A program made the position numbers and the translations under genes. A DNA stretch of 64,000 nt from a virus: IMG/VR virus record IMGVR_UViG_3300042541_003180, positions 1 to 64,000 of that record; one strand, 5' to 3'. The notes under the pieces are model-generated. The model searched no databases and had not been told where the DNA came from. It was given only the letters and a program-made list of their open reading frames with translations. This document shows positions 2,698-52,216 of the stretch, piece by piece; positions within the stretch are counted from its first letter, which is position 1, and each line of letters opens with the position of its first letter.

Positions 2698-2970
2698 TTA
2701 TTCCTCTTTTAATATATTTTTTAATGTTTCTTCTCTTTTAGTTGATAATTCCCAAGCTAAGTAATCTTCTTCGGACATTAGTTCAGACTCTTTAAAAAGA
2801 CGAGCATTTGAGGTTCTCCAATGTGATGATATGTTATCACACATATACTCACAATCATATTGATTTTCTGTATCTGGTTCATCCAGATTTGCTTCTAAAT
2901 AACGTTGTATAGACATTTTACCATAAGACTTATGGTAAACGGGTTGGCTAAGGTCAAATTTATTTCTCAT
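2698..2970 (-). CDS. Hypothetical protein, 90 aa
   Basis: A small acidic protein with no recognised domain. The start FDLSQPVYHKSYGKMSIQRYLE could form a small beta fold, while the rest is helical. It ends KREETLKNILKEE, which faintly resembles the recurrent tail. A TAACTTTG box (complement of 2975-2982) lies four bases upstream of the ATG, again suggesting a leaderless host-type promoter. Confidence 0.55.
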   Translation of the reverse strand: MRNKFDLSQPVYHKSYGKMSIQRYLEANLDEPDTENQYDCEYMCDNISSHWRTSNARLFKESELMSEEDYLAWELSTKREETLKNILKEE

Positions 2971-2974
2971 ACTA

Positions 2975-2982
2975 CAAAGTTA
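2975..2982 (-). promoter_or_regulatory. Host-type -7 element TAACTTTG
   Basis: The complement matches TAnnTTTG and sits just upstream of the start at 2970. The distance implies a leaderless transcript. Confidence 0.42.
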
Positions 2983-3021
2983 CATTTAATTTTTAATATA
3001 TACAAAAAAGTAATTTTTATA

Positions 3022-3717
3022 ATGAGATTTATACAAAAGTTTAAAATATTTGAATCTACACAAGATTTACCAGAAAAGGGTACTAAGTGGATCAATGATA
3101 AAGGTGAAAAGATATTTATATTGAGACCAGATCAATATGGTTATATTGGTTATTATAACTTATCCGATCCAGAATATAAGAGACATATTAGTCCAGAAAC
3201 ATTTTATAACGAGTATAAACCATTAGATAAACATATTTATAGAGACGATATTGAGTTTGATTTTGATAAAGCTACTTATTTATCAGATGAGAAAGCTATC
3301 ATTGCTGCTTATTTCATAACTAAAGAAAATGAAAAGTCTATTGAAATTCTAAATATAAAAGAATTTGCTGCTGATACGGCCACTTTTATGGATAATGCCA
3401 GACCTTATTCAGTTACTTTCCACAAAGGTACTTTACCGACTTCACAAATTGCTATTTTAGGAGAAGTTCCTGAAAAAGAAGGTTTCTTCTATGTTAAAGT
3501 TCCTTATTGGTTATACAAAGAAAACCCAGAGTTGAATATTAAAAGAATAGTTGGTGATTATCATCATATGAAAAGATTAGATCTTAGAGATTTTAGTTTA
3601 AGTAATAAAGAATTGATGTCTAATTTCAAAGATCCTAATGTAATTAAATACTTTGCTAGTTCTGATAAAGATAAGAGAACTCAACAACAAGTAATAAATT
3701 ACGGAAGACGTAGTTAA
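3022..3717 (+). CDS. Virion-type protein with N-terminal capsid-targeting-like peptide, 231 aa
   Basis: I start this gene at the ATG at 3022, giving MRFIQKFKIFESTQDLPE, because this restores the N-terminal peptide shared by about 20 proteins here; the longer frame from 2905 only adds non-coding upstream sequence. The LPE at residues 16-18 fits the (L/I)xE cleavage rule of T4 prohead protease. The rest (a beta-rich domain with WINDKGEKIFILRPDQYGYIGYY, then a helical C-terminus) is not recognised. It is predicted to be packaged in the head. It converges on the small gene 3714-3968 with a four-base overlap. Confidence 0.68.
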   Translation: MRFIQKFKIFESTQDLPEKGTKWINDKGEKIFILRPDQYGYIGYYNLSDPEYKRHISPETFYNEYKPLDKHIYRDDIEFDFDKATYLSDEKAIIAAYFITKENEKSIEILNIKEFAADTATFMDNARPYSVTFHKGTLPTSQIAILGEVPEKEGFFYVKVPYWLYKENPELNIKRIVGDYHHMKRLDLRDFSLSNKELMSNFKDPNVIKYFASSDKDKRTQQQVINYGRRS

Positions 3718-3968
3718 ATACCTAAATCATTTAATTTTTGATCTCTAATTTCTGAAACAAATAAACTATTAAAGGTTCCTTTTTCAGACCATACACGATC
3801 ATTTCTTGTATGAATTTTATTTTCAGTTTTTATAACACTATAGTAAATTTTAACCCAAGGTTTTCTTTCACTACTATAATCATCTATAACATTAATTATA
3901 ATTCTGTGATTTTTCTCAAGTTTAGTTAAATAATCTTTTACAATTATTTCTTTATTTTTTTCTGTCAT
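3714..3968 (-). CDS. Hypothetical protein, 84 aa, with C-terminal RDQKLNDLGI tail
   Basis: An unknown 84-residue protein. Its last residues, EIRDQKLNDLGI, are the clearest copy of the recurrent C-terminal tail. The central segment HRIIINVIDDYSSERKPWVKIYYSVIK looks like three beta strands. Its start overlaps the end of the dihydrofolate reductase gene by 17 bases, so the two are translated from one message. Confidence 0.62.
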   Translation of the reverse strand: MTEKNKEIIVKDYLTKLEKNHRIIINVIDDYSSERKPWVKIYYSVIKTENKIHTRNDRVWSEKGTFNSLFVSEIRDQKLNDLGI

Positions 3969-5909: not shown

Positions 5910-7511
5910 ATGAAATACTTAAAATTATTTGAAGAGATCGAACTTACTATAGGTGAGTTAGAAAAAGAAAGAGATGGTGAGGTACGTGGTAACAAGTTAG
6001 TTAAAAAACTAAAAGAAAGACCGGTAAAATTATCAATTAAAGGTAACGGTGAGAAAAATATAACTAAAGTAGAGGTAGATGGTAAAGAAGTTACACCTGC
6101 TGTTGCTGCTAAAGAAATTAGTACAAATGATAAGTATGATAAGGATAAGGGTAGAAAAGTATTTATTAAAAATAATAGATATGATGATGTTTTAATTTCT
6201 GGTAAAAAACACTTTAAACTTAATCAAGTAACAAAAACTCCGGAATTTGGTGCTGTTGGACCAGGTGTATTAACAAGACAATATGAAGCAATACAATGTT
6301 TATTTATAGCCTTTAAGTTAAGATATCCAGGTGAGATAGTAGATAAGGATAGAGTTATTGATTTTTGGGAAAAATATGTTAATAAAGATGATAAAGTTTT
6401 TAAAAGAATTGGTATTTATTTGGATCCTAAGTTTACTTTAACACGTGAAATGATAGATAGTTTATCAACTAATAGAGATTGGTTAAATACTTTCGTTAGA
6501 GTACCTGAACTTTTGATGAATTTTAAAGGTATTTTCCCTCGTGTTAATAATGCTAGAAAGTACTTAGTTTTCCTTGAGTCAAATAAGGATCCTATTTCAC
6601 CGGTTGTAAATATAGTCAAAAAGTATAATGAATTAAAGAAGATTGCTAAATCTTATGTTAATTTTTCTAAGTTTTGTCCAGCCGATGTTTATATTGTTAT
6701 TGAAAAATCTTTACCTACGATTAATAAAGAAATAAGTGCACAAACTTCTATTGAAGGTTTGGTTAAACTACTAGATCGTTATTTTGATAGTAATGAACTG
6801 ATACCGGTATCACTTAAAAAGCTTAATGAAGGTGATAGAGTTATTGTTAATAAAGAAAAAACAAAAAAACTACCAGATTTTACAATTGATAAATTTGTTA
6901 TAACTGATGATCCGTTAAAAGGAATTGCATCAAAACTAAAAGTTAAATCTGTTTGGATGTCAGAGACTCCTAATGGTGAAGAAGAGCCAGAACAACCATC
7001 GAGAGATATAATTTTTGACTCATCTGATACTGGTAAAGCTAGAAATATTGATGGTGATATTTTAGGAAGGTCTTCAAGACACGGTAAGATAGCATTAAAA
7101 TCAATTATTTCATTTTTTGAGAAGAATGGTTTTGTTGAACTATATGATTTAACACTTGATTTATATTCTAACCTAAGTACAAAGAGTGAAGATGAATTAA
7201 GAGAAATGATTTTATCTACACATAGTAATTTATTAGACTTAGTACCCGATATAACACAAGTACCAACAAGAACTAAAAGTGGTGGTGCTAATAAAATGTA
7301 TAGTGATTTGGTAGAAGGAAGTACGGTAAGTAATATTAAAAATAGATTAATATCCAAACTACAATCTCTTCAGTTATTAGTTGCGATTGCAACTATTCAA
7401 TCGGTAGAACCTACTGATGCAAATATAGCAATTACTGGTATTATGAGATATGCTCTTTCTATTCAAACAGAGCTTTTTAATGATACACCGAGATATTTAA
7501 GAATAATTTAA
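5910..7511 (+). CDS. Virion-type protein with capsid-targeting-like leader, 533 aa, CPADVYIV motif
   Basis: I choose the ATG at 5910 (MKYLKLFEEIELTIGELE) rather than the upstream GTG at 5883, because it restores the shared leader and its IGE site. The body is a large, globular, mixed alpha/beta protein. Residues about 255-262, CPADVYIV, resemble the (S/N/C)PADIWIV signature I associate with large uncharacterised phage virion proteins, but I cannot name a reaction. A basic segment (KSVWMSETPNGEEEPEQPSR) looks like a loop. It converges with 7508-7801, overlapping by four bases. It is likely packaged, perhaps as an enzyme. Confidence 0.66.
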   Translation: MKYLKLFEEIELTIGELEKERDGEVRGNKLVKKLKERPVKLSIKGNGEKNITKVEVDGKEVTPAVAAKEISTNDKYDKDKGRKVFIKNNRYDDVLISGKKHFKLNQVTKTPEFGAVGPGVLTRQYEAIQCLFIAFKLRYPGEIVDKDRVIDFWEKYVNKDDKVFKRIGIYLDPKFTLTREMIDSLSTNRDWLNTFVRVPELLMNFKGIFPRVNNARKYLVFLESNKDPISPVVNIVKKYNELKKIAKSYVNFSKFCPADVYIVIEKSLPTINKEISAQTSIEGLVKLLDRYFDSNELIPVSLKKLNEGDRVIVNKEKTKKLPDFTIDKFVITDDPLKGIASKLKVKSVWMSETPNGEEEPEQPSRDIIFDSSDTGKARNIDGDILGRSSRHGKIALKSIISFFEKNGFVELYDLTLDLYSNLSTKSEDELREMILSTHSNLLDLVPDITQVPTRTKSGGANKMYSDLVEGSTVSNIKNRLISKLQSLQLLVAIATIQSVEPTDANIAITGIMRYALSIQTELFNDTPRYLRII

Positions 7512-8033: not shown

Positions 8034-8243
8034 ATGAGGTACTTGAAAAGATTTAACGAAAATAAAGATGTATTCATGGAATACTTACTTGAGTTTACTG
8101 AGAACGGTAAGCCAGAAGAGCTATATAATACTAGATTAAGTAAATTACTTAGATTTGTAAGAATGGAAGGACTTAAAGATTACACAATATCAGGTCAAAC
8201 AAGTACTGGTGAATGGAAAATAATACTAAAAATAGGAAAATGA
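8034..8243 (+). CDS. Small virion-type protein with capsid-targeting-like leader, 69 aa
   Basis: A 69-residue protein starting MRYLKRFNENKDVFMEYLLEF, a close match to the recurrent leader, with LLE as the possible prohead-protease site. Only about 48 residues would remain after cleavage: a helix (NTRLSKLLRFVRMEGL) and two strands. T4 internal proteins are likewise small and basic after processing. A strong hairpin with T-run follows directly. Confidence 0.62.
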   Translation: MRYLKRFNENKDVFMEYLLEFTENGKPEELYNTRLSKLLRFVRMEGLKDYTISGQTSTGEWKIILKIGK

Positions 8244-8245
8244 AG

Positions 8246-8270
8246 AACCCACTCGAAAGTGGGTTTTTTT
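8246..8270. terminator. Bidirectional intrinsic terminator
   Basis: ACCCACT-CGAA-AGTGGGT with a seven-T run; the stem lies between the convergent genes 8034-8243 and 8269-9237 and can serve both. On the minus strand the loop is a stable TTCG. Confidence 0.85.
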
Positions 8271-9237
8271 AATTCATATAATCTGTAAAAAATTGTTCAA
8301 AGATCGCTTGCATTACTGGAACACATATTGAGTTTCCTGCCAAAGCTACGTGTTGTTTAGTTGATAAACTTGTAGTTAATAGCTTATCAATGTCTGCATC
8401 TTTAACCCCCATAAAACGATAACCTTCTCTTGCAGTTAGAGTTCTAATAGTTTTATCATCTAACATAATTTGTGGTGATCCTGATGTAGTTAAACAAGGT
8501 GAACATCCGTCAATTGAGTAAATACGTCTAGCTTGGTCATACCTCAAATCACTTCTACGAGCAATCATCTTACATACTGAGTTTAATCTAGGTGTATTGA
8601 TTTCATAAGGTGGTGTAATAAATAAACTATTATCGGCAGTTGTATCAATAAATGGTTTCATCGAAACTCTAGTTTTTTTGTGTTTATGAACACCCATCAT
8701 TTTATTAGAAACATCTAAAGAAGATTCTCCTAATACTGAAAACATAAAAACTCTCTCACGATTTTGAGGACAACCAAAGTCAGCACCATTAAGTACCATC
8801 CAAGCTGAACCATAACCTAAAGAGTTAAGTTTATCGATGTAGTCGTTAAATTTTTTAATATGGTTTTTGGAAACTAGATTTTTAACATTTTCCATTAAAA
8901 GATATTTTGGTTTATTATGTTCTACGATTCTTTCAACTTCGTACAATAAACCACTTCGAGTTCCTTTTTCAATACCACGTTGTACACCAGATATAGATAT
9001 ATCTTGACAAGGGAATGAATAAGTTAAAAAATCACAATGAGGGAATGTTTTTTCATCAACTTTTGATACATCACCTAAATTACCTTGTTCGGTAGTGTGT
9101 AGTGAGTCGTAAGCTTCATTTGCTGATTTAAGAATGTCACAATTTGCGACGTTACGGTATTTAATACCACTATACTTTAGTGCTAGTTCTTGGGTACCAT
9201 ACCCTGAGAATAGACTTATAATTTTTAATTCTTCCAT
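8269..9237 (-). CDS. DNA (cytosine-5-)-methyltransferase
   Basis: A 322-residue C5-cytosine methyltransferase that transfers a methyl group from AdoMet to cytosine in DNA, probably to protect phage DNA from host restriction. Ordered motifs are visible: I, SLFSGYGTQE (residues 8-17); IV, FPCQDIS with nucleophile Cys77; VI, ENVKN (116-120); VIII, QNRERVF (158-164); a target-recognition region around RSDLRYDQARRIYSID; IX, RTLTAREGYR; and X, LAGNSICVPV. The length is normal. No restriction endonuclease lies beside it, so it is an orphan in this window. Confidence 0.95.
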   Translation of the reverse strand: MEELKIISLFSGYGTQELALKYSGIKYRNVANCDILKSANEAYDSLHTTEQGNLGDVSKVDEKTFPHCDFLTYSFPCQDISISGVQRGIEKGTRSGLLYEVERIVEHNKPKYLLMENVKNLVSKNHIKKFNDYIDKLNSLGYGSAWMVLNGADFGCPQNRERVFMFSVLGESSLDVSNKMMGVHKHKKTRVSMKPFIDTTADNSLFITPPYEINTPRLNSVCKMIARRSDLRYDQARRIYSIDGCSPCLTTSGSPQIMLDDKTIRTLTAREGYRFMGVKDADIDKLLTTSLSTKQHVALAGNSICVPVMQAIFEQFFTDYMN

Positions 9238-9268: not shown

Positions 9269-9742
9269 TTAGTCTAAATGTCTAATATCTTTGTGTGAAG
9301 ATTTAGATTGATTCGAGTGTGACCATAATCTTGCAAATGGTGTAGTAAAGTAATCATTATAACATAAAGTATCATCAATATGAAGATTGATGTTATTTTC
9401 TTTACAATACTCTGCTTTGGTAGAATCCCATAAAACATCATCAAATTTTTTCTGAATAGTTCCATCTGGAAATTCTATTTCACCTAAGGTTTCTGCTGTT
9501 TTTAATAAGTGATCATAAACTGAGAATTTATGAGTATAGTTGATACCACTTAGTTGTTTTTCTAATTTTTCTGTCCATTCACCACCGGTTATAATGTGAA
9601 CTTCGCCATTATTTTTTATAACAGAGTCTGCTAAAAATACAAAGAACTCTGGAAGAGCATCGATTACTCCGTGTATATCGATACCTATTTTGAATTTTGC
9701 TGTTGAACTTTCGTTCACTATACTACTAAATTTTGTTATCAT
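9269..9742 (-). CDS. HAD-like phosphatase-type protein, 157 aa
   Basis: GIDIHGVIDALPEFF at residues 18-32 resembles HAD motif I, with Asp20 and a His in place of the second Asp. IITGGEW is like motif II, and HIDDTLCYNDYF near residue 126 is like motif IV. Substitution of the acid/base Asp suggests altered chemistry or a non-catalytic role. The start MITKFSSIVNESS loosely resembles the virion leader. A TTAATATATA element lies four bases upstream, so it may be a late, packaged member. The substrate is unknown. Confidence 0.62.
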   Translation of the reverse strand: MITKFSSIVNESSTAKFKIGIDIHGVIDALPEFFVFLADSVIKNNGEVHIITGGEWTEKLEKQLSGINYTHKFSVYDHLLKTAETLGEIEFPDGTIQKKFDDVLWDSTKAEYCKENNINLHIDDTLCYNDYFTTPFARLWSHSNQSKSSHKDIRHLD

Positions 9743-9746
9743 AATT

Positions 9747-9756
9747 TATATATTAA
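9747..9756 (-). promoter_or_regulatory. Phage-type TTAATATATA element
   Basis: The complement reads TTAATATATA, then AATT and the ATG at 9742. It overlaps the stop codon of the upstream gene 9753-10148. Confidence 0.4.
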
Positions 9757-10148
9757 ATTATCTCTTCAATTTTCTTATCTCTTAATTCTGCTGTAGATAA
9801 AATTTCTTGTACAAAGATATGAAAATATTTTGTATTATTAATTAAATCTAATGTAATATTTGTATGTGAACCCATACCATTTGTGTTTGATGATAATATT
9901 GGTTGAATATGTCTATCAGTGCCCCAATATTTGGAACCAGGTGGTGAATAATATTCTCCATTTGGATTAGATGTACTTTCCCAATGTTCTATTATAAATG
10001 ATTTGCTTTCTGTTTGTTCAGGATCACATTCATATAGAATCGTATATTGTCCATTATCATAGTTTACATTTAAAAGTTTACTATAAGCAGGAACTACAAA
10101 TGTAGCTTGATTATAGCTAATATATTGTGATTGTGTTCTTATTATCAT
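9753..10148 (-). CDS. Hypothetical protein, 131 aa, with C-terminal RDKKIEEII tail
   Basis: An unrecognised beta-rich protein (TQSQYISYNQATFVVPAYSK, then a proline/glycine-rich loop at residues 65-85). It ends AELRDKKIEEII, a divergent copy of the recurrent tail. Its ATG overlaps the stop of 10145-10510, and that gene in turn overlaps the HAD/tRNA-binding fusion. The three genes form one translationally coupled operon. Confidence 0.6.
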   Translation of the reverse strand: MIIRTQSQYISYNQATFVVPAYSKLLNVNYDNGQYTILYECDPEQTESKSFIIEHWESTSNPNGEYYSPPGSKYWGTDRHIQPILSSNTNGMGSHTNITLDLINNTKYFHIFVQEILSTAELRDKKIEEII

Positions 10149-10510
10149 ATTCCTAATTTAGTTAGTATTTTATCTCTATAGAAACTTATATCATCAACTA
10201 TAAAAAGGTTTGAATCCGTAATAATTAGATTATCAATAATCTCAATAATTTTTGATGTTGTTCTTAATGACATAGTTCCTACATTTTTATTACTTGTAAC
10301 GATTTGATTAATTTCTAATAAATCAACCTCTGCATTTTCTGTATTAACAATACCTTTACATTTTTGTATAGAATATTTATCTACAAATTCTTTATTATCT
10401 AGTATTTTTTTATAGTATTTATTTTCCATATCTACCATAACATAAGAAACCTCGGTAGATTTCCCACCGAGGTGATTATGAATTAAATCTCCTACTTTAA
10501 CTAATTTCAT
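10145..10510 (-). CDS. Hypothetical protein, 121 aa, with C-terminal RDKILTKLGI tail
   Basis: Unknown function. The N-terminus MKLVKVGDLIHNHLGGKSTEVSYVMVD reads like a small beta-barrel start, and the C-terminal helix ends SFYRDKILTKLGI, matching the recurrent tail. It sits between the HAD/tRNA-binding fusion upstream and 9753-10148 downstream, with one- and four-base overlaps. Confidence 0.6.
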   Translation of the reverse strand: MKLVKVGDLIHNHLGGKSTEVSYVMVDMENKYYKKILDNKEFVDKYSIQKCKGIVNTENAEVDLLEINQIVTSNKNVGTMSLRTTSKIIEIIDNLIITDSNLFIVDDISFYRDKILTKLGI

Positions 10511-11349
10511 TACAATATTGAAAGTCCTGGTTTAGAACTAATTATTGATAAATTTACATTACCATCCACATCGTAAAAACCTGGCATAATCATCGCTGTA
10601 GACTCAACACCCATCATTTTAACAGGTTTTAAGTTAGTAACAAACAAAACCGTTTTACCGGTTAACATATCTACGTAGTTCTCACCTAATGTAGGTTTAA
10701 TGTTTGTAACAACGGTTCTTAGTGTATCTTCTCCGAAATCAACTTCTAACTTAATAAGTTTATCTGATTTAGGTACGTCTGTTACACTTGTAATTGTACC
10801 TGGTTTAATTTCTAATTTAGATGAAATATCTAAAAACTCACTGAATTCAATTTTATCTTTCATGTTTAATATATTTATTGCTTTAATTTTACATTCTTCT
10901 TTTAGTCCTGGTATTCCTAATTTCCAGGGTTTTACTGGTTCTCCTGTTGAACAATTTACAAAATAATCTTGTTGCTCATCTAAGAAGTCTTGTATATCAT
11001 CTAAGATAACATATTGATTTACTTCTGGATGTCTATCTAACCAAAGTTTAATTTCGTGACCTCTTTTTACTTGGTCATAATAAATTATATCGGTTGCTTC
11101 ACATACATCTACACAATCTGGTGTTACATCAATAATTTCACCTGGTAGATTACGTTCTTTCCAAAGTGCCAACATTCGTTCTATTCCTTTATCTTTCCAA
11201 GTTGAAGAGATAACGATTTTTGCTCCTGTTTTTTCGATAACTTCCTTTAAATTCTGTACATATTCATCCCTGAAGATATGACCAAATTGGTCTCTATCTG
11301 CATAATCTACGTTTAAAACTCCATCAATGTCCAGAAATATCGTTTTCAT
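10510..11349 (-). CDS. HAD phosphatase fused to an EMAP/MetRS-C-type tRNA-binding domain
   Basis: A 279-residue two-domain protein. Residues 1 to about 155 are a HAD phosphatase: FLDIDGVLN (Asp7, Asp9) is motif I, IVISSTWK is motif II, and YVILDDIQDF is motif IV. This pattern is close to the HAD domains of RNA-repair proteins. Residues about 165-279 match the tRNA-binding OB fold of MetRS C-termini, CsaA and Arc1p: KIEFSEFLDISSKLEIKPG, SDKLIKLEVDFG, LTGKTVLFVTNLKPVKMMG and ESTAMIM. I infer phosphate removal from tRNA ends, perhaps repair after anticodon-nuclease attack. A host-type -7 box lies directly upstream. Confidence 0.85.
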   Translation of the reverse strand: MKTIFLDIDGVLNVDYADRDQFGHIFRDEYVQNLKEVIEKTGAKIVISSTWKDKGIERMLALWKERNLPGEIIDVTPDCVDVCEATDIIYYDQVKRGHEIKLWLDRHPEVNQYVILDDIQDFLDEQQDYFVNCSTGEPVKPWKLGIPGLKEECKIKAINILNMKDKIEFSEFLDISSKLEIKPGTITSVTDVPKSDKLIKLEVDFGEDTLRTVVTNIKPTLGENYVDMLTGKTVLFVTNLKPVKMMGVESTAMIMPGFYDVDGNVNLSIISSKPGLSIL

Positions 11350-11354
11350 AATGG

Positions 11355-11362
11355 CAAATATA
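11355..11362 (-). promoter_or_regulatory. Host-type -7 element TATATTTG
   Basis: The complement matches TAnnTTTG and ends six bases before the ATG at 11349, suggesting a leaderless start for the three-gene operon. Confidence 0.45.
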
Positions 11363-11366
11363 CAAC

Positions 11367-11609
11367 TTAATTTTGATTTATTAAAAGAATTTTTTGATTT
11401 CTTGTTAGTTGTTTAATTCTCCATTCTTCTTTTGCTGCCAAAGATTTTGTTTCAAAAGATTGTTGATAAACTAATTTTACTGGAGTTCTAGTCTTGGTGT
11501 ACTTTGCTCCTTTCTTCTTATTATGCGTATCAATTCTCTTTTCTACGTCATTACTGATGCCGGTATAAAGGGTCAAATCACTACACTCTAAAATATAAAC
11601 ATACCACAT
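11367..11609 (-). CDS. Small GIY-YIG domain protein (YhbQ/UPF0213-like)
   Basis: An 80-residue single-domain GIY-YIG protein: WYVYILECSDLTLYTGISND contains the two core strands, DVEKRIDTHN carries the conserved Arg, and AKYTKTRTPVKLVYQQ and AAKEEWRIKQLTR complete the fold with the catalytic-type Glu. Stand-alone proteins of this family occur widely in bacteria and may nick DNA or aid repair; their role is unsettled. It stands upstream of the HAD/tRNA-binding operon on the same strand. Confidence 0.9.
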   Translation of the reverse strand: MWYVYILECSDLTLYTGISNDVEKRIDTHNKKKGAKYTKTRTPVKLVYQQSFETKSLAAKEEWRIKQLTRNQKILLINQN

Positions 11610-12590: not shown

Positions 12591-12611
12591 TGTTATTTTG
12601 TATTTTTAATG

Positions 12612-12685
12612 TGGTCCCAGAGGGATTTGAACCCCCGGCCTCAAAATTATGAGTTTTTTGCTCTAACCAGCTGAGCTATGGGACC
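12612..12685 (-). tRNA. tRNA with CAU anticodon (tRNA-Met elongator, or Ile2)
   Basis: The complement folds as a complete cloverleaf: acceptor GGTCCCA/TGGGACC, D stem GCTC/GAGC with GGTTA loop, a weak A/T-rich anticodon stem (AAAAA/TTTTG, one mismatch) around loop CTCATAA, and T arm GGGGG-TTCAAAT-CCCTC. The anticodon is CAU. The paired G1-C72 end excludes an initiator tRNA. The remaining choices are elongator Met or lysidine-modified Ile2. The discriminator is A, and no CCA is encoded. The A-only anticodon stem is unusually weak. No other tRNA is seen in the window. Confidence 0.93.
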
Positions 12686-13714: not shown

Positions 13715-14425
13715 ATGGTAAAATTACTACCCGCAACATTTAGATGGGTTCCTAAAGTAGATGATATAATTAAAATAGCAGGAATACATCCAAGTCGTGT
13801 ATTTAATGTTTATATTTTTGGTTCACAAGTATATGGTACTTATGATGCAAATTCTGACTGGGATATTATAATGGTAGCAAATAACTCGGTTGAAGCAGTT
13901 GAGTTAAATAAAACAGTTAAAGATGAATATTCATATAATTTACAAACTCGTAATATAAGATATAACATTCATGTTTATACACCAGATAGATTTCAAAAAG
14001 ATTTAGAGTGGCATCGTATGAATAACCTTGAATGTATCTTTGCACCAGAGTGGGCTATCTTAAAAGAAGATAAAAAATTTGATTTTCAGATAAACTTACC
14101 TAAGTTAAGACACGCAACTTCACACGTTAGTTCTAACTCATGGATAAAGTGTAAGAAAAAATTATTGATTGAAGGTGAGTATCGTACTGCGATAAAATCA
14201 TTCTTTCATTCAATTAGAATACCTATGTTTGCATCACAAATTGCACGAAGTGGTAAAATTACTGACTTTACTGCGGCTAATTTTATTTGGAATAGATTAA
14301 TATTTCAAGCATTACCTGCTTATCAAAGAAAGGATTCTAAATGGGATTGGAATTCTTTGAATCTAGAATTCAAAATAACATATAATCTTATGTTAAGTTT
14401 GTTCAGAAAAGTAACTACAAAATAA
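13715..14425 (+). CDS. Nucleotidyltransferase-fold protein, 236 aa
   Basis: Residues 30-52, YIFGSQVYGTYDANSDWDII, show the polymerase-beta-type nucleotidyltransferase signature GS(x)8SDxD, with the metal-binding acidic pair in SDWDI. A third acidic strand is likely at NIRYNIHVYT. The C-terminal half is helical and may be a substrate-binding or HEPN-like region (TAIKSFFHSIRIPMFASQIA). Such proteins transfer a nucleotide to RNA, protein or small molecules; the acceptor is unknown. The gene lies in one operon with its neighbours and overlaps the next gene by one base. Confidence 0.82.
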   Translation: MVKLLPATFRWVPKVDDIIKIAGIHPSRVFNVYIFGSQVYGTYDANSDWDIIMVANNSVEAVELNKTVKDEYSYNLQTRNIRYNIHVYTPDRFQKDLEWHRMNNLECIFAPEWAILKEDKKFDFQINLPKLRHATSHVSSNSWIKCKKKLLIEGEYRTAIKSFFHSIRIPMFASQIARSGKITDFTAANFIWNRLIFQALPAYQRKDSKWDWNSLNLEFKITYNLMLSLFRKVTTK

Positions 14426-14735: not shown

Positions 14736-16166
14736 ATGTTAAAAAAATATATTGATTTTATAACAGAATCACATGATTTAATAACAGAATCTCAGTTGAT
14801 TGAAATGCTTTTAGAATCTGATGTTATGTTTTCTGATAACTTTAAGAAAGTATTAGGTAAAATAGACAATCCAGTTGCGAAAAAGATTTTAGGTTTAGAG
14901 AAAAAAGATTTACCAGTAGTGGCTAACTACTTTGATATAGATCCAAAAAGAAATGACTATGTTTATTTCACTCCAGATAGAAAAGCTCAAGAAATTTTAA
15001 ATGATCCAAAAGAATTATATCGTTTTGTAGGAAATAATGGTGGTTGGTTAACACATGGTGAAGCAAATAATGCAATTTTTGGTATATTAGGATATGTTCC
15101 ACAAGGTGATGTTTATAGACCTGATTCAACAGAAGTAGGAGAAGTTGTTGAAAAGATAGTTTCTGAAAAGTCTGGTAAAACTTGGATTTGGTTAAAATTT
15201 GCAAATGGACAAGGAGTTTTTAACTTAGAAAAATTGAGACCAGTAGATGATAGAAGTAAGTTAGTTTGGTCAAAAAATCGTCAAGATGTTAGAGTTGGTA
15301 GATCAATGAATGCTCTTTTGACTTTAGCTGCTAAAGATGATGATACTGCTAAGTTTAATGCGAGAGATATTGAAATATTTGTTAATTTATATAAAGCTCA
15401 AATAGATAAATTTAATGATAAGTTCTCTTTCTTTGAAGAAGTTAAGGGTAGAAGAATATATGATAAGTATCAATATGATAATTACTATGATGCGAGTGGA
15501 TCATTAGCTAACTCTTGTATGGCAGAAGCTGATTCGAGTTGGTTAGAACCATATACAGATAATATTGATACTGTTTCATTAGTTATTTTTAAAGCTACAG
15601 AAGATGAAGATATGATTATTGGTCGTGCTATTCTTTGGGAAACTTTAGATGGTAAAAAGGTAATGGATAGAATCTACACAAATAATGATTCTGATGTTGA
15701 ATTGTTTAGACAATATGCACAAGAAAATGGTTGGTGGTATAAATCAAACAATAATAGTGCTGCAAGAATCGAAGGTATTGGACCAGAAGGTCAAGATCAA
15801 AATCTATCTATTGACGTTCAATTGAAAAAAGATCATGAGAATTTCCCTTATATGGATACTCTGAAGTATTATTATCCAGCAACTGGAATTATAACAAATT
15901 CTAGAAAACCTAAAGGTTTCTTTTATTATTTAGAAGATACTGGTGGAGAATGGAGTCATTCAGATTGTAAAACTTGTGATGATAGTGAAGTTATGAAATG
16001 TCCTACTTGTAATGGAGATGGAGAAGAAGTTTGTATTGAATGTAATGGTGACGGAGAAATTGATGGTCAACAATGTTCAACTTGTGGTGGAGAAGGTAAG
16101 AAAACTTGTTCAAAATGTGATGGTGATGAGGAAGTAGCTTGTACAGACTGTGAAGAATATAGATAA
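14736..16166 (+). CDS. Capsid-targeting-like protein with CxxC zinc-cluster tail (paralogue 2 of 3)
   Basis: A 476-residue relative of 4464-5861 and 16220-17614. The leader MLKKYIDFITESHDLITES is very close to the T4 IP-type MKTYQEFI.EA leader and has two ITE sites. The shared middle domain carries ASGSLANSCMAEA, VSLVIFKA, GRAILWE and MDRIYTNND. It has an extra insert (about residues 85-185) absent from paralogue 1. The end has six CxxC units with glycine-rich spacers. It is followed by a terminator and then its tandem paralogue. I infer packaging; the biochemical role is unknown. Confidence 0.68.
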   Translation: MLKKYIDFITESHDLITESQLIEMLLESDVMFSDNFKKVLGKIDNPVAKKILGLEKKDLPVVANYFDIDPKRNDYVYFTPDRKAQEILNDPKELYRFVGNNGGWLTHGEANNAIFGILGYVPQGDVYRPDSTEVGEVVEKIVSEKSGKTWIWLKFANGQGVFNLEKLRPVDDRSKLVWSKNRQDVRVGRSMNALLTLAAKDDDTAKFNARDIEIFVNLYKAQIDKFNDKFSFFEEVKGRRIYDKYQYDNYYDASGSLANSCMAEADSSWLEPYTDNIDTVSLVIFKATEDEDMIIGRAILWETLDGKKVMDRIYTNNDSDVELFRQYAQENGWWYKSNNNSAARIEGIGPEGQDQNLSIDVQLKKDHENFPYMDTLKYYYPATGIITNSRKPKGFFYYLEDTGGEWSHSDCKTCDDSEVMKCPTCNGDGEEVCIECNGDGEIDGQQCSTCGGEGKKTCSKCDGDEEVACTDCEEYR

Positions 16167-16219: not shown

Positions 16220-17614
16220 ATGATTACAAACTACTACGATTATATAACAGAAAGTAAATTACAATTACTCTTAGAAGCTAAAATAGTATTTACTACTAAT
16301 TTTATGGAGGTCTTAGATAAAATAGAATCTCCTATAGCAAAAAAACTTATTTCACTTAGAGGTGAAGATAAAGATATTGATAGAAACTTTATTGATATTA
16401 ATAAAGAAAAGATAGATAGTGTTTTCTTTAAACCACAAGATAAAATAGATAAAGTAAAATATAAGATTTTAAATAAAGGATCTGTTTATGATAATTTATC
16501 TAAGGCTGCAAAAGGAATCATAAACAGGTTTGCTGAACCTAGAAATGGTGAACAAGGTATAATTACAAGAACAATGACTGTTGATGAATTAAATGAAATA
16601 TCACCTAGTGGTGTTTGGAGATATATGTATGATAATAGTGATGTTATGGTTGTTTTTCAATTTGGTTCAGGAAAGGATATTTTTGATGTACTTACACCTA
16701 AAAGTAATTTAACACCAGACTATGCTTCGATAAGAAGTACTGATGTAAATGTTGGTAGATTTGTTAGAGCGTTTTTGACAAAACTAGGTGAGAAGTTTAC
16801 AGATATAGAAATTGAAAGTTTTGTTGATCAATATAAGAAAGTAATGCAGATGAAAACAGATATATTTTCAAGATTTAAAGAAGTTAAAGGTGAAGATATA
16901 AAACATTGTTATTTAGTGGATAATTATGAATCAGAATCCGGTTCTTTAGGTGGTTCTTGTATGCGTCACAGTAGATGTCAAGATTATTTTGATATTTATG
17001 TTAATAATCCTGATAAGGTATCGTTGGTTATTTTATTAAGTGAACAAGATTCTTCAAAAATCGCAGGAAGAGCCATTCTTTGGCTAGATGATAATGATAG
17101 ACGAATTATGGATAGAATCTATATAATTAGAACTGCTGATATACTTTTATTTACAGAGTATTGTGATTCGAAAGGTTATCTTCATAAAGAAAGTCAAACT
17201 TATAGTTCAACCACACCACTTGTTGAAAATGGTATTGAATTGGATGAACATGATTCAAAAGTAGTTATTACTTTAAAGAAAGGTGAGTATAGTCCTTATC
17301 CTTATATGGACACGATGAAATATTATAGTCCAGAAACTGGAGTAATATCTAATCGTTATATTAGAACTGCAAATGGTTGTGTTGAACTAACTGATACTGA
17401 TGGTGGTCCTCATGAAGGATGTGATATATGTGATGGTAGCGGTCGAGTTGATTGTCCAGAGTGTGAGGGTAGAGAAGAAATAGATTGTACTAATTGTGAT
17501 GGATCGGGTGGAGATGCTAGTGGTGAAGCTTGTAGTGTGTGTCAAGGTGGTGGCATGGTTCGTTGTGATATATGTGATGGTAACGGTCGAGTTGATTGTC
17601 CAGAATGTAGTTAA
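16220..17614 (+). CDS. Capsid-targeting-like protein with CxxC zinc-cluster tail (paralogue 3 of 3)
   Basis: A 464-residue tandem paralogue of 14736-16166. The leader MITNYYDYITESKLQLLLEA has ITE and LLE sites. The shared domain shows SGSLGGSCMRHSRC, VSLVILLS, GRAILWL and MDRIYIIR, closer to paralogue 1 than to 2. A region at residues 80-170 corresponds to the insert of paralogue 2. The C-terminus has six CxxC units. Fourteen, six and six CxxC units across the paralogues show that the zinc array expands and contracts. It is predicted to be packaged and to act after ejection, but no target is known. Confidence 0.68.
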   Translation: MITNYYDYITESKLQLLLEAKIVFTTNFMEVLDKIESPIAKKLISLRGEDKDIDRNFIDINKEKIDSVFFKPQDKIDKVKYKILNKGSVYDNLSKAAKGIINRFAEPRNGEQGIITRTMTVDELNEISPSGVWRYMYDNSDVMVVFQFGSGKDIFDVLTPKSNLTPDYASIRSTDVNVGRFVRAFLTKLGEKFTDIEIESFVDQYKKVMQMKTDIFSRFKEVKGEDIKHCYLVDNYESESGSLGGSCMRHSRCQDYFDIYVNNPDKVSLVILLSEQDSSKIAGRAILWLDDNDRRIMDRIYIIRTADILLFTEYCDSKGYLHKESQTYSSTTPLVENGIELDEHDSKVVITLKKGEYSPYPYMDTMKYYSPETGVISNRYIRTANGCVELTDTDGGPHEGCDICDGSGRVDCPECEGREEIDCTNCDGSGGDASGEACSVCQGGGMVRCDICDGNGRVDCPECS

Positions 17615-25896: not shown

Positions 25897-27051
25897 ATGA
25901 AAGAACAATTACTAAAACTTATAAATGAAAGATCTCCTGGTGCTATACCACTTTTCTTGGTGGTTAGAGGTTCACATGCTTATGGAACTAACATAGAGAC
26001 ATCCGATACTGACTTTGCAGGTGTATTTATACAACCAATGGATGATATTATGGGGTTTAAATATAAACAACAAATAAATGATGATAATAATGATATTGTA
26101 ATCTATGAGATACGTAGATTTTTAGAATTGTTGGCTAGTAATAATCCAACAGTTTTGGAATTGCTTAATACTCCAGAAGATTGTATTATTTATAAAGATC
26201 CTATTTTTGATTTGATATTGGAAGATAGAGACCAATTTATTACTAAAATCTGTGCAAACTCTTTTGGTGGTTATGCTAGAGCTCAAATTGGTAAAGCTAA
26301 AGGTCAAAACAAGAAACAAAACTGGGAGAAAGATAAAGTAGTTCGTAAAGACTTACTTGACTTCTGTTATGTTATTGATGGTGAGAAAACAATACCTTTT
26401 AAGAAATCGAAATATGGTTCTGATTACAAAGGTGATTTCTTACATAAACTATTTGGTAGGAAATATGATATAAGAATGTTTGGATTAACAAATGTTCCAC
26501 ATGCTAAAGACGTTTATGCGGTTTACTACAATGATAAACCAGGTTTTTACAAAGGACTTGTAAAAGTAGGTGATGAAGGTTTAGAAACACCTAATTTAGG
26601 TATTTCAAATCAGTTAAGATTGTCTTCTATACCAAAAGGTGAAGTCTCATTGTGTAACATTATTTATAATAAAGATGGTTACTCTGAACACTGTAAAGAC
26701 TTTAGAGAATATGAAGAATGGTTAGAAAAGAGAAATCTTCAAAGATGGGTTGATGTTAAGTCACACGGTCAACAAATTGACGGGAAAAACATGTTACATT
26801 GTCGTAGATTGATGGACATGGCTCGTGAAATTGCAGAGGGTAAGGGTATACTTGTTAGAAGATCAAATGCTCAAGAGCTTCTTGCAATTAGAAGAGGTGA
26901 GGTAGATTTACAAACTTTGATTGACCACGTTGAAAGTGAGATTAAAGAAGTAGATACTTTGTTTAAAGAATCAAATTTACCGGAAAAGGTAGATGAAAAA
27001 TTTATAAATAGTTTATTAGTAAAAATTAGAAAATCAGTATATGGTATATAG
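25897..27051 (+). CDS. Predicted nucleotidyltransferase (COG3541/YcgL-like)
   Basis: A 384-residue protein whose N-terminus, FLVVRGSHAYGTNIETSDTD (residues 19-38), carries the GSxxYGT...SDxD signature of a polymerase-beta-type nucleotidyltransferase, with a further acidic strand at DNNDIVIYEIRRFLELL. The long helical remainder with HCRRLMDMAREIAEG matches the large nucleotidyltransferases often found in jumbo phages. The natural acceptor is not established. It differs from the smaller protein at 13715-14425, so the phage has two. It overlaps the next gene by 11 bases. Confidence 0.85.
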   Translation: MKEQLLKLINERSPGAIPLFLVVRGSHAYGTNIETSDTDFAGVFIQPMDDIMGFKYKQQINDDNNDIVIYEIRRFLELLASNNPTVLELLNTPEDCIIYKDPIFDLILEDRDQFITKICANSFGGYARAQIGKAKGQNKKQNWEKDKVVRKDLLDFCYVIDGEKTIPFKKSKYGSDYKGDFLHKLFGRKYDIRMFGLTNVPHAKDVYAVYYNDKPGFYKGLVKVGDEGLETPNLGISNQLRLSSIPKGEVSLCNIIYNKDGYSEHCKDFREYEEWLEKRNLQRWVDVKSHGQQIDGKNMLHCRRLMDMAREIAEGKGILVRRSNAQELLAIRRGEVDLQTLIDHVESEIKEVDTLFKESNLPEKVDEKFINSLLVKIRKSVYGI

Positions 27052-33352: not shown

Positions 33353-33928
33353 TTATCTTCTACCATTTGGATTTTGTTCTTGTGCTAGTAATGTATTTAG
33401 ACGATCTTGAAACTCAGTTCTAATAGGCTCACGTGCGGCAACTTCTCCGGTTACATCACGTCTTTCTATTAGATCATAAACTTTTGTAAGTTCGGCAACC
33501 ACCTGCATCGCACTCATTTGTCTAGGTTCATAATCCCAGATTTGAGTTCTTAGATAATCTCTATTTTTAAAGTTATATAAAGGAGCTTTTTTACTTACTT
33601 CTTGTTTATAGATTTGTAAAGTTGGATATTTCTCTTTAACTTTCTTTAAATCTTTCAATTTTGAAATAACTTTTTTTCTTTCAACATCAGTAATATCTCT
33701 CTTTCTTGAAATATTTTCTAATGTAGTTATTAAAGTATCAATATTTGCATAAATGTCTAAAAGTCTTTCTTTGATTACCTTTGAAATGGTTCTACCACCA
33801 ACAAACTGCATTGTTAATAATCCAAGTATAGTTATAGGAAATGATAAAATAGATTTTATTATTCCTCCTAGTGATTCGTTTATTTCTTCTCCTTGAGAGA
33901 ATGATTCAAATGTTTTAATGTTTTTCAT
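33353..33928 (-). CDS. Virion-type membrane-segment protein with capsid-targeting-like leader, 191 aa
   Basis: The leader MKNIKTFESFSQGEEINES ends in INE, a perfect (L/I)xE site. It is followed at once by a hydrophobic helix (IIKSILSFPITILGLLTMQF) and then helical and basic regions (ERLLDIYANIDTLITTLENI). Cleavage after INE would leave a protein with an N-terminal membrane anchor. The same plan is seen in 23789-24463 and 34807-35226. Confidence 0.67.
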   Translation of the reverse strand: MKNIKTFESFSQGEEINESLGGIIKSILSFPITILGLLTMQFVGGRTISKVIKERLLDIYANIDTLITTLENISRKRDITDVERKKVISKLKDLKKVKEKYPTLQIYKQEVSKKAPLYNFKNRDYLRTQIWDYEPRQMSAMQVVAELTKVYDLIERRDVTGEVAAREPIRTEFQDRLNTLLAQEQNPNGRR

Positions 33929-48920: not shown

Positions 48921-49679
48921 TTAAAATTTTATAAATAATACTTGTACTGGTATACCAAGTTGAAGAGCTATAGTAGACCTTTTGTGTCCTCCAATCAATC
49001 TATTATCATTACCTTGATTGTCCTTTAAGTTTATAACAAAGGGCGTGGGTAAAGATATTTTACCATTATTTTTAATCAAATCATCATAAGTTATTAAGTA
49101 TCGTTCAACATCTGCTTTAATTGGACAAGTAGGTAATGCACTTTTTAGTTCTTCAATACCTTTTATACCTTTATTTTTAACTTGAAAAGAACCTTTCCAT
49201 CCTCCCTTTCCAGATGTACTACCGAATATTTTTGTTAAATCTCCCATATTTCCGGTTGAATCAACATCTTTCCAAGTAACTACACTACATGATTTTATAA
49301 AATTTGATACTTCTTTTATACAAGTTGGATCACCGCCCTCTACAATACCATCTTTATCTGGAACACCAACTATATCCTTTTTAAATTCAATGTTTCCAAA
49401 TCCTAAACTTTCAGGATTTTTATTTAACAATAGTTTTTTAATTTCTTCCTTATCGGTTGTTTCTTTTTTAAGATAATTTTTTACTACATAATGAAAAACA
49501 CTAGGTATTTTAGCATAAACCCTATCAAAGTTATCTGGTTTAAAAAACAACTCCATATTATTTATCAACTCATGTAGTTCTGATAAAATTGTTTTATCAT
49601 CTGGTGTAACCCAATCGATTTCAAATTTCATCTCATTTTCATCTAGTATGAATGATTCATATACTTTTAAATACCTCAT
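48921..49679 (-). CDS. Virion-type protein with capsid-targeting-like leader and ParB-like C-terminal domain, 252 aa
   Basis: The leader MRYLKVYESFILDENEM has ILDE near residue 14. The C-terminal 70 residues contain SLPTPFVINLKDNQGNDNR and LIGGHKRSTIALQLGIPVQV, the ParB/Srx core (xGHxRxxAAxxLGxxxVPV) with nuclease-type GxHR variant GGHKR. Some ParB-like proteins bind or cut DNA or hydrolyse CTP. A copy packed in the head could act on DNA during or just after entry (inference). The gene heads the downstream part of a five-gene minus operon. Confidence 0.7.
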   Translation of the reverse strand: MRYLKVYESFILDENEMKFEIDWVTPDDKTILSELHELINNMELFFKPDNFDRVYAKIPSVFHYVVKNYLKKETTDKEEIKKLLLNKNPESLGFGNIEFKKDIVGVPDKDGIVEGGDPTCIKEVSNFIKSCSVVTWKDVDSTGNMGDLTKIFGSTSGKGGWKGSFQVKNKGIKGIEELKSALPTCPIKADVERYLITYDDLIKNNGKISLPTPFVINLKDNQGNDNRLIGGHKRSTIALQLGIPVQVLFIKF

Positions 49680-51637: not shown

Positions 51638-52216
51638 TTACCAGAAGCCGGGGTACGTACGTCCACCCCACAGATGTCCGTATTTATTTATTCTGCATGC
51701 CCAATAACCTGCAGTAGTTTTATCTTTCTTAGTATCACACTTATGTCTTGCTGCAAATGATTTTCTTGCTTTAGGATCACTTACCTTAGCAGTTAGACCA
51801 CCATGAACATCTCCAAAGGCAATCTTTTTAACATTTCCAGTTTTAGGATTTCTAACATAAACATGGTATTTCTTAGTACCACCTCTCATAGGTTTATTCA
51901 ACTCTACTTCTCTACCTTTGTATTCTGCTTCGTTTAATTCTTCAATAGTTTCCATTGGTAAATCTAAAGGAACTATTTGACCTTCATATTCGGCAAATCG
52001 ACCTATATCAGTTGATTCAAATAATTCGGTATCTAATTCAGATAATTCGATTTGATTTGCATCAAATAATTGTCTTGCTTCTTTAATTAGGTTAAAGTAT
52101 TGATTAGATCCAGGTCTAAATACATTTTCAACAATAGGTTTATTATTATCGATGTGATATTGTAGATTTTCTGATATTCTACCAGAGAATGATTCAAATA
52201 GTTTTAAGTACTTCAT
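51638..52216 (-). CDS. Virion-type protein with capsid-targeting-like leader and conserved phage C-terminal domain, 192 aa
   Basis: The leader MKYLKLFESFSGRISEN, the best consensus copy, has ISE at residues 14-16. The last 80 residues (KKYHVYVRNPKTGNVKKIAF, FAARHKCDTKKDKTTAGYWA, and CRINKYGHLWGG) form a domain I recall from many marine T4-like phages, with one Cys pair and a basic, aromatic end; its function is undescribed. A TTAATATATAC element lies about 20 bases upstream. It heads the five-gene minus operon. Confidence 0.7.
   Translation of the reverse strand: MKYLKLFESFSGRISENLQYHIDNNKPIVENVFRPGSNQYFNLIKEARQLFDANQIELSELDTELFESTDIGRFAEYEGQIVPLDLPMETIEELNEAEYKGREVELNKPMRGGTKKYHVYVRNPKTGNVKKIAFGDVHGGLTAKVSDPKARKSFAARHKCDTKKDKTTAGYWACRINKYGHLWGGRTYPGFW

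What the first reader, a model, noticed from the sequence alone, without database searches (positions are those of the whole stretch)
10510..11349. HAD phosphatase fused to a MetRS/EMAP-type tRNA-binding domain
Both halves are recognisable in one frame: DxDG HAD motifs and the SDKLIKLEVDFG...NLKPVKMMG OB fold. This joins end-healing-type chemistry to tRNA recognition. It suggests tRNA end repair or processing, perhaps against anticodon nucleases, and it is the lead gene of an operon with two tail-motif proteins.
Basis: partly seen in the sequence, partly recalled or inferred. Interest (0 to 1): 0.8.

Follow-up and report, generated by a model that had tools for sequence, protein, structure and literature searches.

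The report
Phage phosphatase fused to tRNA-binding domain
A group of large phages carries a single protein that joins an RNA-end-repair-type phosphatase to a small domain that in other proteins grips the 3' tip of tRNA; it is probably a tool for mending or unblocking tRNAs that the bacterium damages to stop infection, though neither activity has been tested.

Summary
The minus-strand ORF 10510-11349 (279 aa) is one intact protein: HAD_SAK_2 phosphatase (Pfam E 6e-27) followed by a Trbp111/EMAPII-type tRNA_bind OB fold (E 5e-16). It lies on an 85-kb phage fragment. Eight IMG/VR relatives (84-100% identity) keep the in-frame fusion; both halves are under purifying selection; catalytic residues are invariant; AlphaFold gives pLDDT 91 and Foldseek recovers both folds. 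The join is exact: stand-alone phage HADs end '..KAIRILN' (plus 0-2 residues), stand-alone phage OB genes start like 'MKEQIEF', and the fusion reads '..KAINILN|MKDKIEF'. I found the fusion in no other phage group. One unrelated phage encodes the two as overlapping neighbours. A 179-kb relative also carries PNK-phosphatase, Rnl2-type ligase, RlaP, PTH2 and aaRS-like genes, so a tRNA-repair role is well supported by context. The OB family binds the tRNA 3' CA end, not the elbow or anticodon; three of five key contact residues are kept. Best reading: a tRNA-directed end phosphatase of a phage RNA-repair set. Whether it acts at anticodon nicks or at the 3' CCA end is open. The 'two tail-motif proteins' claim is not supported.

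The parts
10510..11349 (-). HAD_SAK_2 / tRNA_bind fusion gene, 279 aa, stop codon included
10864..11349 (-). HAD_SAK_2 half (aa 1-162); motif I D7/D9 at 11323-11331, motif II S48/S49 at 11203-11208, R96 at 11062-11064, D117/D118 at 10996-11001
   Evidence: these residues invariant in 38 of 38 aligned proteins
10513..10863 (-). tRNA_bind OB half (aa 163-279); tRNA 3'-CA contact equivalents K197 (10759-10761), S250 (10600-10602), M253 (10591-10593)
   Evidence: with PMC11286949; invariant in 23 of 23 aligned proteins
10861..10863 (-). Fusion junction: M163, equivalent to the start Met of stand-alone phage OB genes
11355..11362 (-). TATATTTG, a TAnnTTTG promoter-like box 5 nt before the ATG, kept in all nine records
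   Evidence: the box as a Bacteroidota promoter element is from general knowledge
10145..10510 (-). Operon gene 2 (121 aa, no known family), coupled by TAATG
9753..10148 (-). Operon gene 3 (131 aa, no known family, fast-evolving), coupled by ATGA
9269..9742 (-). Operon gene 4 (157 aa), PHROG 13623; HAD-like motifs by eye (DIHGV, ITGG, IDD)
8269..9237 (-). C5 cytosine DNA methylase, next gene in the same direction
11367..11609 (-). GIY-YIG domain protein immediately upstream
12611..12685 (-). tRNA with CAT anticodon; no CCA encoded at its 3' end
13715..14425 (+). Nucleotidyltransferase (NTP_transf_2)
   Evidence: 29.6% identical homologue lies near a stand-alone OB gene in L048
25897..27051 (+). 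RlaP, RNA-repair-associated polymerase-beta-type nucleotidyltransferase
   Evidence: E 4.9e-21

Best explanation
It is a phage tRNA-end phosphatase. The HAD_SAK_2 half hydrolyses a terminal phosphate left on tRNA by host attack (a 3'- or 2'-phosphate at a cut, or a phosphate blocking the 3' end). The Trbp111-like OB half holds the substrate by its single-stranded 3' CA end and so aims the enzyme at tRNA. The cleaned end is then rebuilt and sealed by the phage's own RlaP, PNK and Rnl2-type ligase. Shown here: the fusion, its conservation, intact catalytic motifs, kept tRNA-contact residues, and the repair genes in the same phage group. Inferred: phosphatase activity, tRNA binding, and which end is acted on. 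Of the 0.55 below, about 0.35 goes to repair of nuclease-cut tRNA and 0.2 to 3'-CCA-end deblocking.
For: HAD active-site residues invariant in 38 of 38 proteins. OB contact residues K33, S82, M85 of Trbp111 kept in 23 of 23. Fusion kept in 9 records under purifying selection. PNK-HAD, Rnl2-type ligase, RlaP, PTH2 and HD_4 in the same phage group. Split version as overlapping genes HAD - OB - HAD in L041. Stand-alone phage OB genes neighbour RtcB, PTH2, a CCA-enzyme-type head domain, SmpB, HD_4, NADAR and Nudix genes. SAK HADs are predicted RNA-end phosphatases (PMC7824862).
Against: No activity or binding measured. R75, the most important Trbp111 residue, is Val here and F78 is Met. The phage group already has a PNK-linked phosphatase. 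If the OB holds CCA, an anticodon nick is far away on the tRNA. HAD_SAK_2 and OB genes seldom share a record (1 of 37; 4 of 16). Context evidence has no matched control. The window's own record is a fragment and shows only RlaP of the repair set.
Confidence: 0.55

Rival explanations
1. tRNA 3'-CCA deblocking (sub-model of the best explanation, counted within its confidence): the enzyme reverses 3'-end phosphorylation or pyrophosphorylation of tRNA by toxSAS/CapRel-type defence enzymes, alone or after an HD or Nudix enzyme has removed the outer phosphate.
For: The OB family binds the 3' CA end (PMC11286949). A phage HD hydrolase is reported to remove the toxSAS modification (PMC11559606), and phage OB genes neighbour HD_4, Nudix and HAD genes.
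Against: A 3'-phosphate weakens Trbp111 binding. No toxSAS link was tested. The HD_4, Nudix and HAD neighbours occur in different phages, not in this window.
Confidence: 0.2
2. The HAD acts on a nucleotide or other small molecule and the OB fold serves for dimerisation or loose nucleic-acid binding, not for aiming at tRNA.
For: HAD phosphatases are substrate-diverse; Foldseek's best solved HAD match is a sugar-bisphosphate phosphatase (GmhB). Trbp111 is a strong dimer (PMC11286949). R75 and F78 are not kept.
Against: K33, S82 and M85 equivalents are invariant; repair-gene context; the Pfam family is named for RNA repair proteins.
Confidence: 0.25
3. The fusion is a neutral joining of two adjacent genes by stop-codon loss, and the halves still work independently.
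For: The junction lies exactly at a gene border, with the old start Met kept. The OB half evolves faster than the HAD half. A split neighbouring pair exists in L041.
Against: The fusion is kept in all 9 records at about 85% identity. The predicted linker is short. The L041 HAD is not the nearest relative of the fused HAD, so the pairing probably arose more than once.
Confidence: 0.15

Closest known systems
HAD_SAK_2 (PF18143), 'Swiss-army-knife' HAD phosphatases of phages (PMC7824862)
   Same: Whole domain over the Pfam cut-off; all catalytic motifs kept; nearest relatives are stand-alone phage proteins at 43-54% identity
   Different: Described as tending to be stand-alone in jumbo phages; here fused to an OB fold
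Trbp111 / EMAPII / MetRS C-terminal tRNA_bind OB fold (PF01588; 8vtz)
   Same: Over the Pfam cut-off; fold match TM 0.83 by target length; K33, S82, M85 equivalents kept
   Different: R75 and F78 equivalents changed; a 4-residue insertion shared only with a phage clade; attached to a phosphatase, not an aaRS
T4-type Pnkp (kinase plus HAD 3'-phosphatase)
   Same: A HAD phosphatase in a phage RNA-repair setting; one is present in G001
   Different: No kinase domain in this protein; different HAD family; OB fold in place of the kinase
Phage small alarmone hydrolases (HD) that reverse toxSAS tRNA pyrophosphorylation (PMC11559606)
   Same: Would work alike only if the CCA-deblocking rival is right
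   Different: HD fold, not HAD; no OB fusion

Membership tests
HAD_SAK_2 | Pfam profile over the curated cut-off | tested here: met
   95.1 bits against 27.5
HAD_SAK_2 | HAD catalytic motifs (DxD, Ser/Thr, Lys/Arg, Asp-Asp) | tested here: met
   D7, D9, S48, S49, R96, D117, D118 in 38 of 38
HAD_SAK_2 | Phosphatase activity on RNA ends | not testable with these tools
   Predicted in PMC7824862; needs an assay
Trbp111/EMAPII tRNA_bind | Pfam profile and OB fold | tested here: met
   59.1 bits against 27; Foldseek to 8vtz
Trbp111/EMAPII tRNA_bind | tRNA 3'-CA contact residues K33, R75, F78, S82, M85 | tested here: inconclusive
   K33, S82, M85 kept; F78 is Met; R75 is Val
Trbp111/EMAPII tRNA_bind | Binding to the tRNA 3' end | not testable with these tools
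   Needs a binding assay
MetRS beta subunit (TIGR00399) | NCBIfam curated cut-off | tested here: not met
   71.3 bits against 116.65
T4-type Pnkp | P-loop kinase domain beside the HAD | tested here: not met
   No kinase match in the fusion
Phage RNA-repair system | RNA ligase, PNK and RlaP in the same phage group | tested here: met
   the window's own record is a fragment and shows only RlaP

The most novel reading that the evidence does not exclude
Phages use a Trbp-like OB fold as a general tRNA 3'-end targeting module for several unrelated phosphohydrolases (HAD_SAK_2 fused or adjacent; another HAD with Nudix; HD_4 with PTH2), which reverse 3'-CCA modifications laid down by host defence such as toxSAS/CapRel. 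The fusion studied here is the case that exposes this class of counter-defence.
Probability: 0.15. Interest if true: 0.8.

Novelty: new variant of a known kind. Interest (0 to 1): 0.55.

Why it matters
Phage SAK HADs have been called RNA-end phosphatases without an identified RNA target in the papers I read. A natural fusion to a domain whose tRNA 3'-end recognition has been solved makes a direct, testable prediction of substrate (tRNA) and docking site. It also points to a family of stand-alone phage tRNA-binding proteins sitting among tRNA-repair and ribosome-rescue genes, which I did not find described in the papers I could search.

Tried and rejected
Artefact or frameshift: rejected, 9 records agree. 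Origin of the OB half from a host MetRS: not supported; it nests in a phage stand-alone clade with L040 (98/86) and L041 (92/78), and Parabacteroides MetRS lies outside. 'Phage MetRS missing its C-terminal domain': followed because a G001 gene matches tRNA-synt_1g, but it matches the general I/L/M/V family equally well and looked LeuRS-like by eye, so the idea was dropped. Gene 9269-9742 as a second HAD_SAK_2: not supported. T4 Rnl1 (PF09511) search in the family records: no match, but the controls were silent too, so uninformative. First AlphaFold job with 9 near-identical rows gave pLDDT 53 and was discarded. The one genome-contig scan used two narrow peptide patterns and returned only OB-domain matches, no fusion. 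The first OB tree held one wrongly framed row (L023) and was rebuilt without it, without the long CsaA row and without L022. PADLOC: no match for the fusion.

Full report
What is there. The window is 64 kb of an 85,311-base IMG/VR phage record. At 10510-11349, minus strand, one ORF of 279 aa carries HAD_SAK_2 (aa 3-134, E 6.2e-27) and tRNA_bind (aa 184-255, E 4.7e-16).

Is it a real fusion? Eight further IMG/VR records encode the same protein at 84-100% identity with no stop between the halves. Both halves are under purifying selection: dN/dS 0.05-0.09 for the HAD, 0.26-0.35 for the OB fold. A deep alignment (A10, 56 rows) gave an AlphaFold2 model with mean pLDDT 91 and pTM 0.72. Foldseek matched the C-terminal half to MetRS-related protein 2cwp, CsaA and Trbp111 (8vtz, TM 0.83 by target length), and the N-terminal half to viral HAD proteins and, more weakly, GmhB; no listed match was a good match over both domains.

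How it arose. The nearest HADs in other phages (43-54% identity; L093-L122) are mostly stand-alone proteins of about 162 aa ending '..KAIRILN' or similar, with a stop codon and often a new ATG within a few bases. The nearest OB proteins are phage proteins without the HAD: L040 (62%), 113 aa, starting 'MKEQIEF', and L041 (61%), with 'MKDQIEF' after a short N-terminal extension. The fusion reads '..KAINILN|MKDKIEF', so it looks like loss of the stop codon at a gene border with the old initiator Met kept as M163; this history is inferred. In the OB tree the fused domain groups with L040 (98/86) and L041 (92/78) inside a phage clade supported at 100/99 that excludes the bacterial MetRS- and LysRS-type domains and a second set of phage OB proteins. 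Most of that clade shares a 4-residue insertion ('EFLEIEKKL').

How restricted it is. tblastn of 50,697 phage records found matches in 298 records, none covering 80% of the protein; 72,556 plasmids gave none either. Pattern scans of IMG/VR found the fusion only in this one phage group. A review of jumbo phages states that SAK HADs tend to occur as a stand-alone domain (PMC7824862). The scans are not exhaustive.

A split version. In contig L041, HAD_SAK_2 (2253-2849), tRNA_bind (2830-3336) and a second HAD_SAK_2 (3333-3899) are consecutive and overlapping. This HAD is only about 33% identical to the fused one, so the pairing probably arose separately. It is one case: HAD_SAK_2 and OB genes otherwise seldom share a record (1 of 37 and 4 of 16), though many records are fragments.

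Active site and tRNA contacts. HAD residues D7, D9, S48, S49, R96, D117 and D118 are invariant in 38 of 38 proteins. The co-crystal of Aquifex Trbp111 shows that this OB family captures the tRNA 3' CA and not the elbow or anticodon; K33, R75, F78, S82 and M85 matter, with R75A nearly abolishing binding, and a 3'-phosphate weakens binding (PMC11286949). By alignment, K33, S82 and M85 correspond to K197, S250 and M253, invariant in 23 of 23 fused and stand-alone phage proteins; F78 is Met in all; R75 is Val here and Ser, Val, Arg or Thr in others. CA-end binding is therefore likely but not assured.

Setting. The fusion leads a tight operon: TAATG joins it to the next gene and ATGA joins that to the third, followed by a HAD-like gene and a C5 DNA methylase; this order is kept in the relatives as far as their loci reach. 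A TAnnTTTG box 5 nt before the ATG is kept in all nine records; with the T9SS sorting domain (Por_Secre_tail) found in G001 it hints at a Bacteroidota host. The 179,626-base relative G001, largely syntenic, encodes PNK-HAD, a 214-aa Rnl2-type ligase, a PTH2-domain protein, an HD_4 protein, class I and class II aaRS-like proteins, IF3, NFACT-R, RNB, NADAR, HAD_SAK_1 and 2H-SAK hits, and T4-like portal and capsid proteins. PNK and the ligase recur in G004 and G005, and RlaP is in the window at 25897-27051. The published model groups ligases, PNK, RlaP, 2H and HAD enzymes as phage RNA-repair functions.

What the OB proteins do elsewhere. Stand-alone phage OB genes sit beside RtcB (L084); a PolyA_pol head domain of CCA-enzyme type, a nucleotidyltransferase, PTH2 and SmpB (L048); PTH2 and HD_4 (L049, with the same arrangement by similarity in L051, L052 and L055); NADAR and ADP-ribosylglycohydrolase (L071); and a HAD-like gene with Nudix and, in some, Smr (L069 and similar). 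Of 53 selected neighbours scanned: NUDIX 6, HD_4 4, PTH2 4, GIY-YIG 4. They were picked as neighbours without a matched control, so this is context and not statistical proof.

Mechanism. I commit to a tRNA-directed end phosphatase of a phage RNA-repair set (0.55). Two sub-models remain. In the first, the OB fold holds the intact CCA of a nuclease-cut tRNA and the HAD cleans the cut end for RlaP, PNK and the ligase. In the second, the enzyme acts at the CCA end itself, for example after toxSAS-type pyrophosphorylation, which a phage HD hydrolase is reported to reverse (PMC11559606). Against the first: distance, and the separate PNK phosphatase. Against the second: poor tolerance of a 3'-phosphate by Trbp111. 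A small-molecule phosphatase with an OB dimerisation domain remains possible.

Verdict. Observation confirmed; interpretation partly supported; a new variant (a new fusion of two known phage-borne families) rather than a new kind of system.

Noticed in passing
window, N-termini of e.g. 5910-7511, 8034-8243, 14736-16166, 16220-17614, 33353-33928, 48921-49679, 51638-52216: Many unrelated proteins share an N-terminal peptide like M+YLKLFEEF or M..Y.DFITES. A loose pattern hits 23 of 98 N-termini against 10% of internal windows. It resembles T4 capsid-targeting peptides, from memory only.
   Followed up: partly
9269-9742 (-): HAD-like protein in the same operon with DIHGV where DxD is usual (second Asp replaced by His); PHROG 13623, E 1.4e-20; no profile link to HAD_SAK_2.
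   Followed up: partly
L011:14462-15337 (-) in G001: PTH2 domain (aa 1-68) joined to a C-terminal half with HD-like HxxxHD-type pattern seen by eye; only PTH2 was confirmed.
   Followed up: partly
L011:10208-11044, L011:16498-17757, L012:2044-2898 in G001: Shortened aminoacyl-tRNA-synthetase-like genes: GluRS-like by eye (278 aa), class I I/L/M/V type (419 aa) and class II D/K/N type (284 aa) (for the last two).
   Followed up: no
L044-L047, L050, L069, L072: Recurrent small cluster: HAD-like gene (DFDGT), stand-alone OB gene, Nudix gene, often Smr. The HAD-like gene has no Pfam match in the members scanned and has a homologue in G001, L010:6362-6739.
   Followed up: partly
L101, L116, L131, L143, L145, L150, L151: HAD_SAK_2 genes often occur as two adjacent paralogues, e.g. 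a DIDGVLN type and a DHDGVIC type; in L041 the OB gene sits between such a pair.
   Followed up: partly
12611-12685 (-) and G001 tRNAs: The window tRNA and two of three G001 tRNAs do not encode CCA.
   Followed up: no
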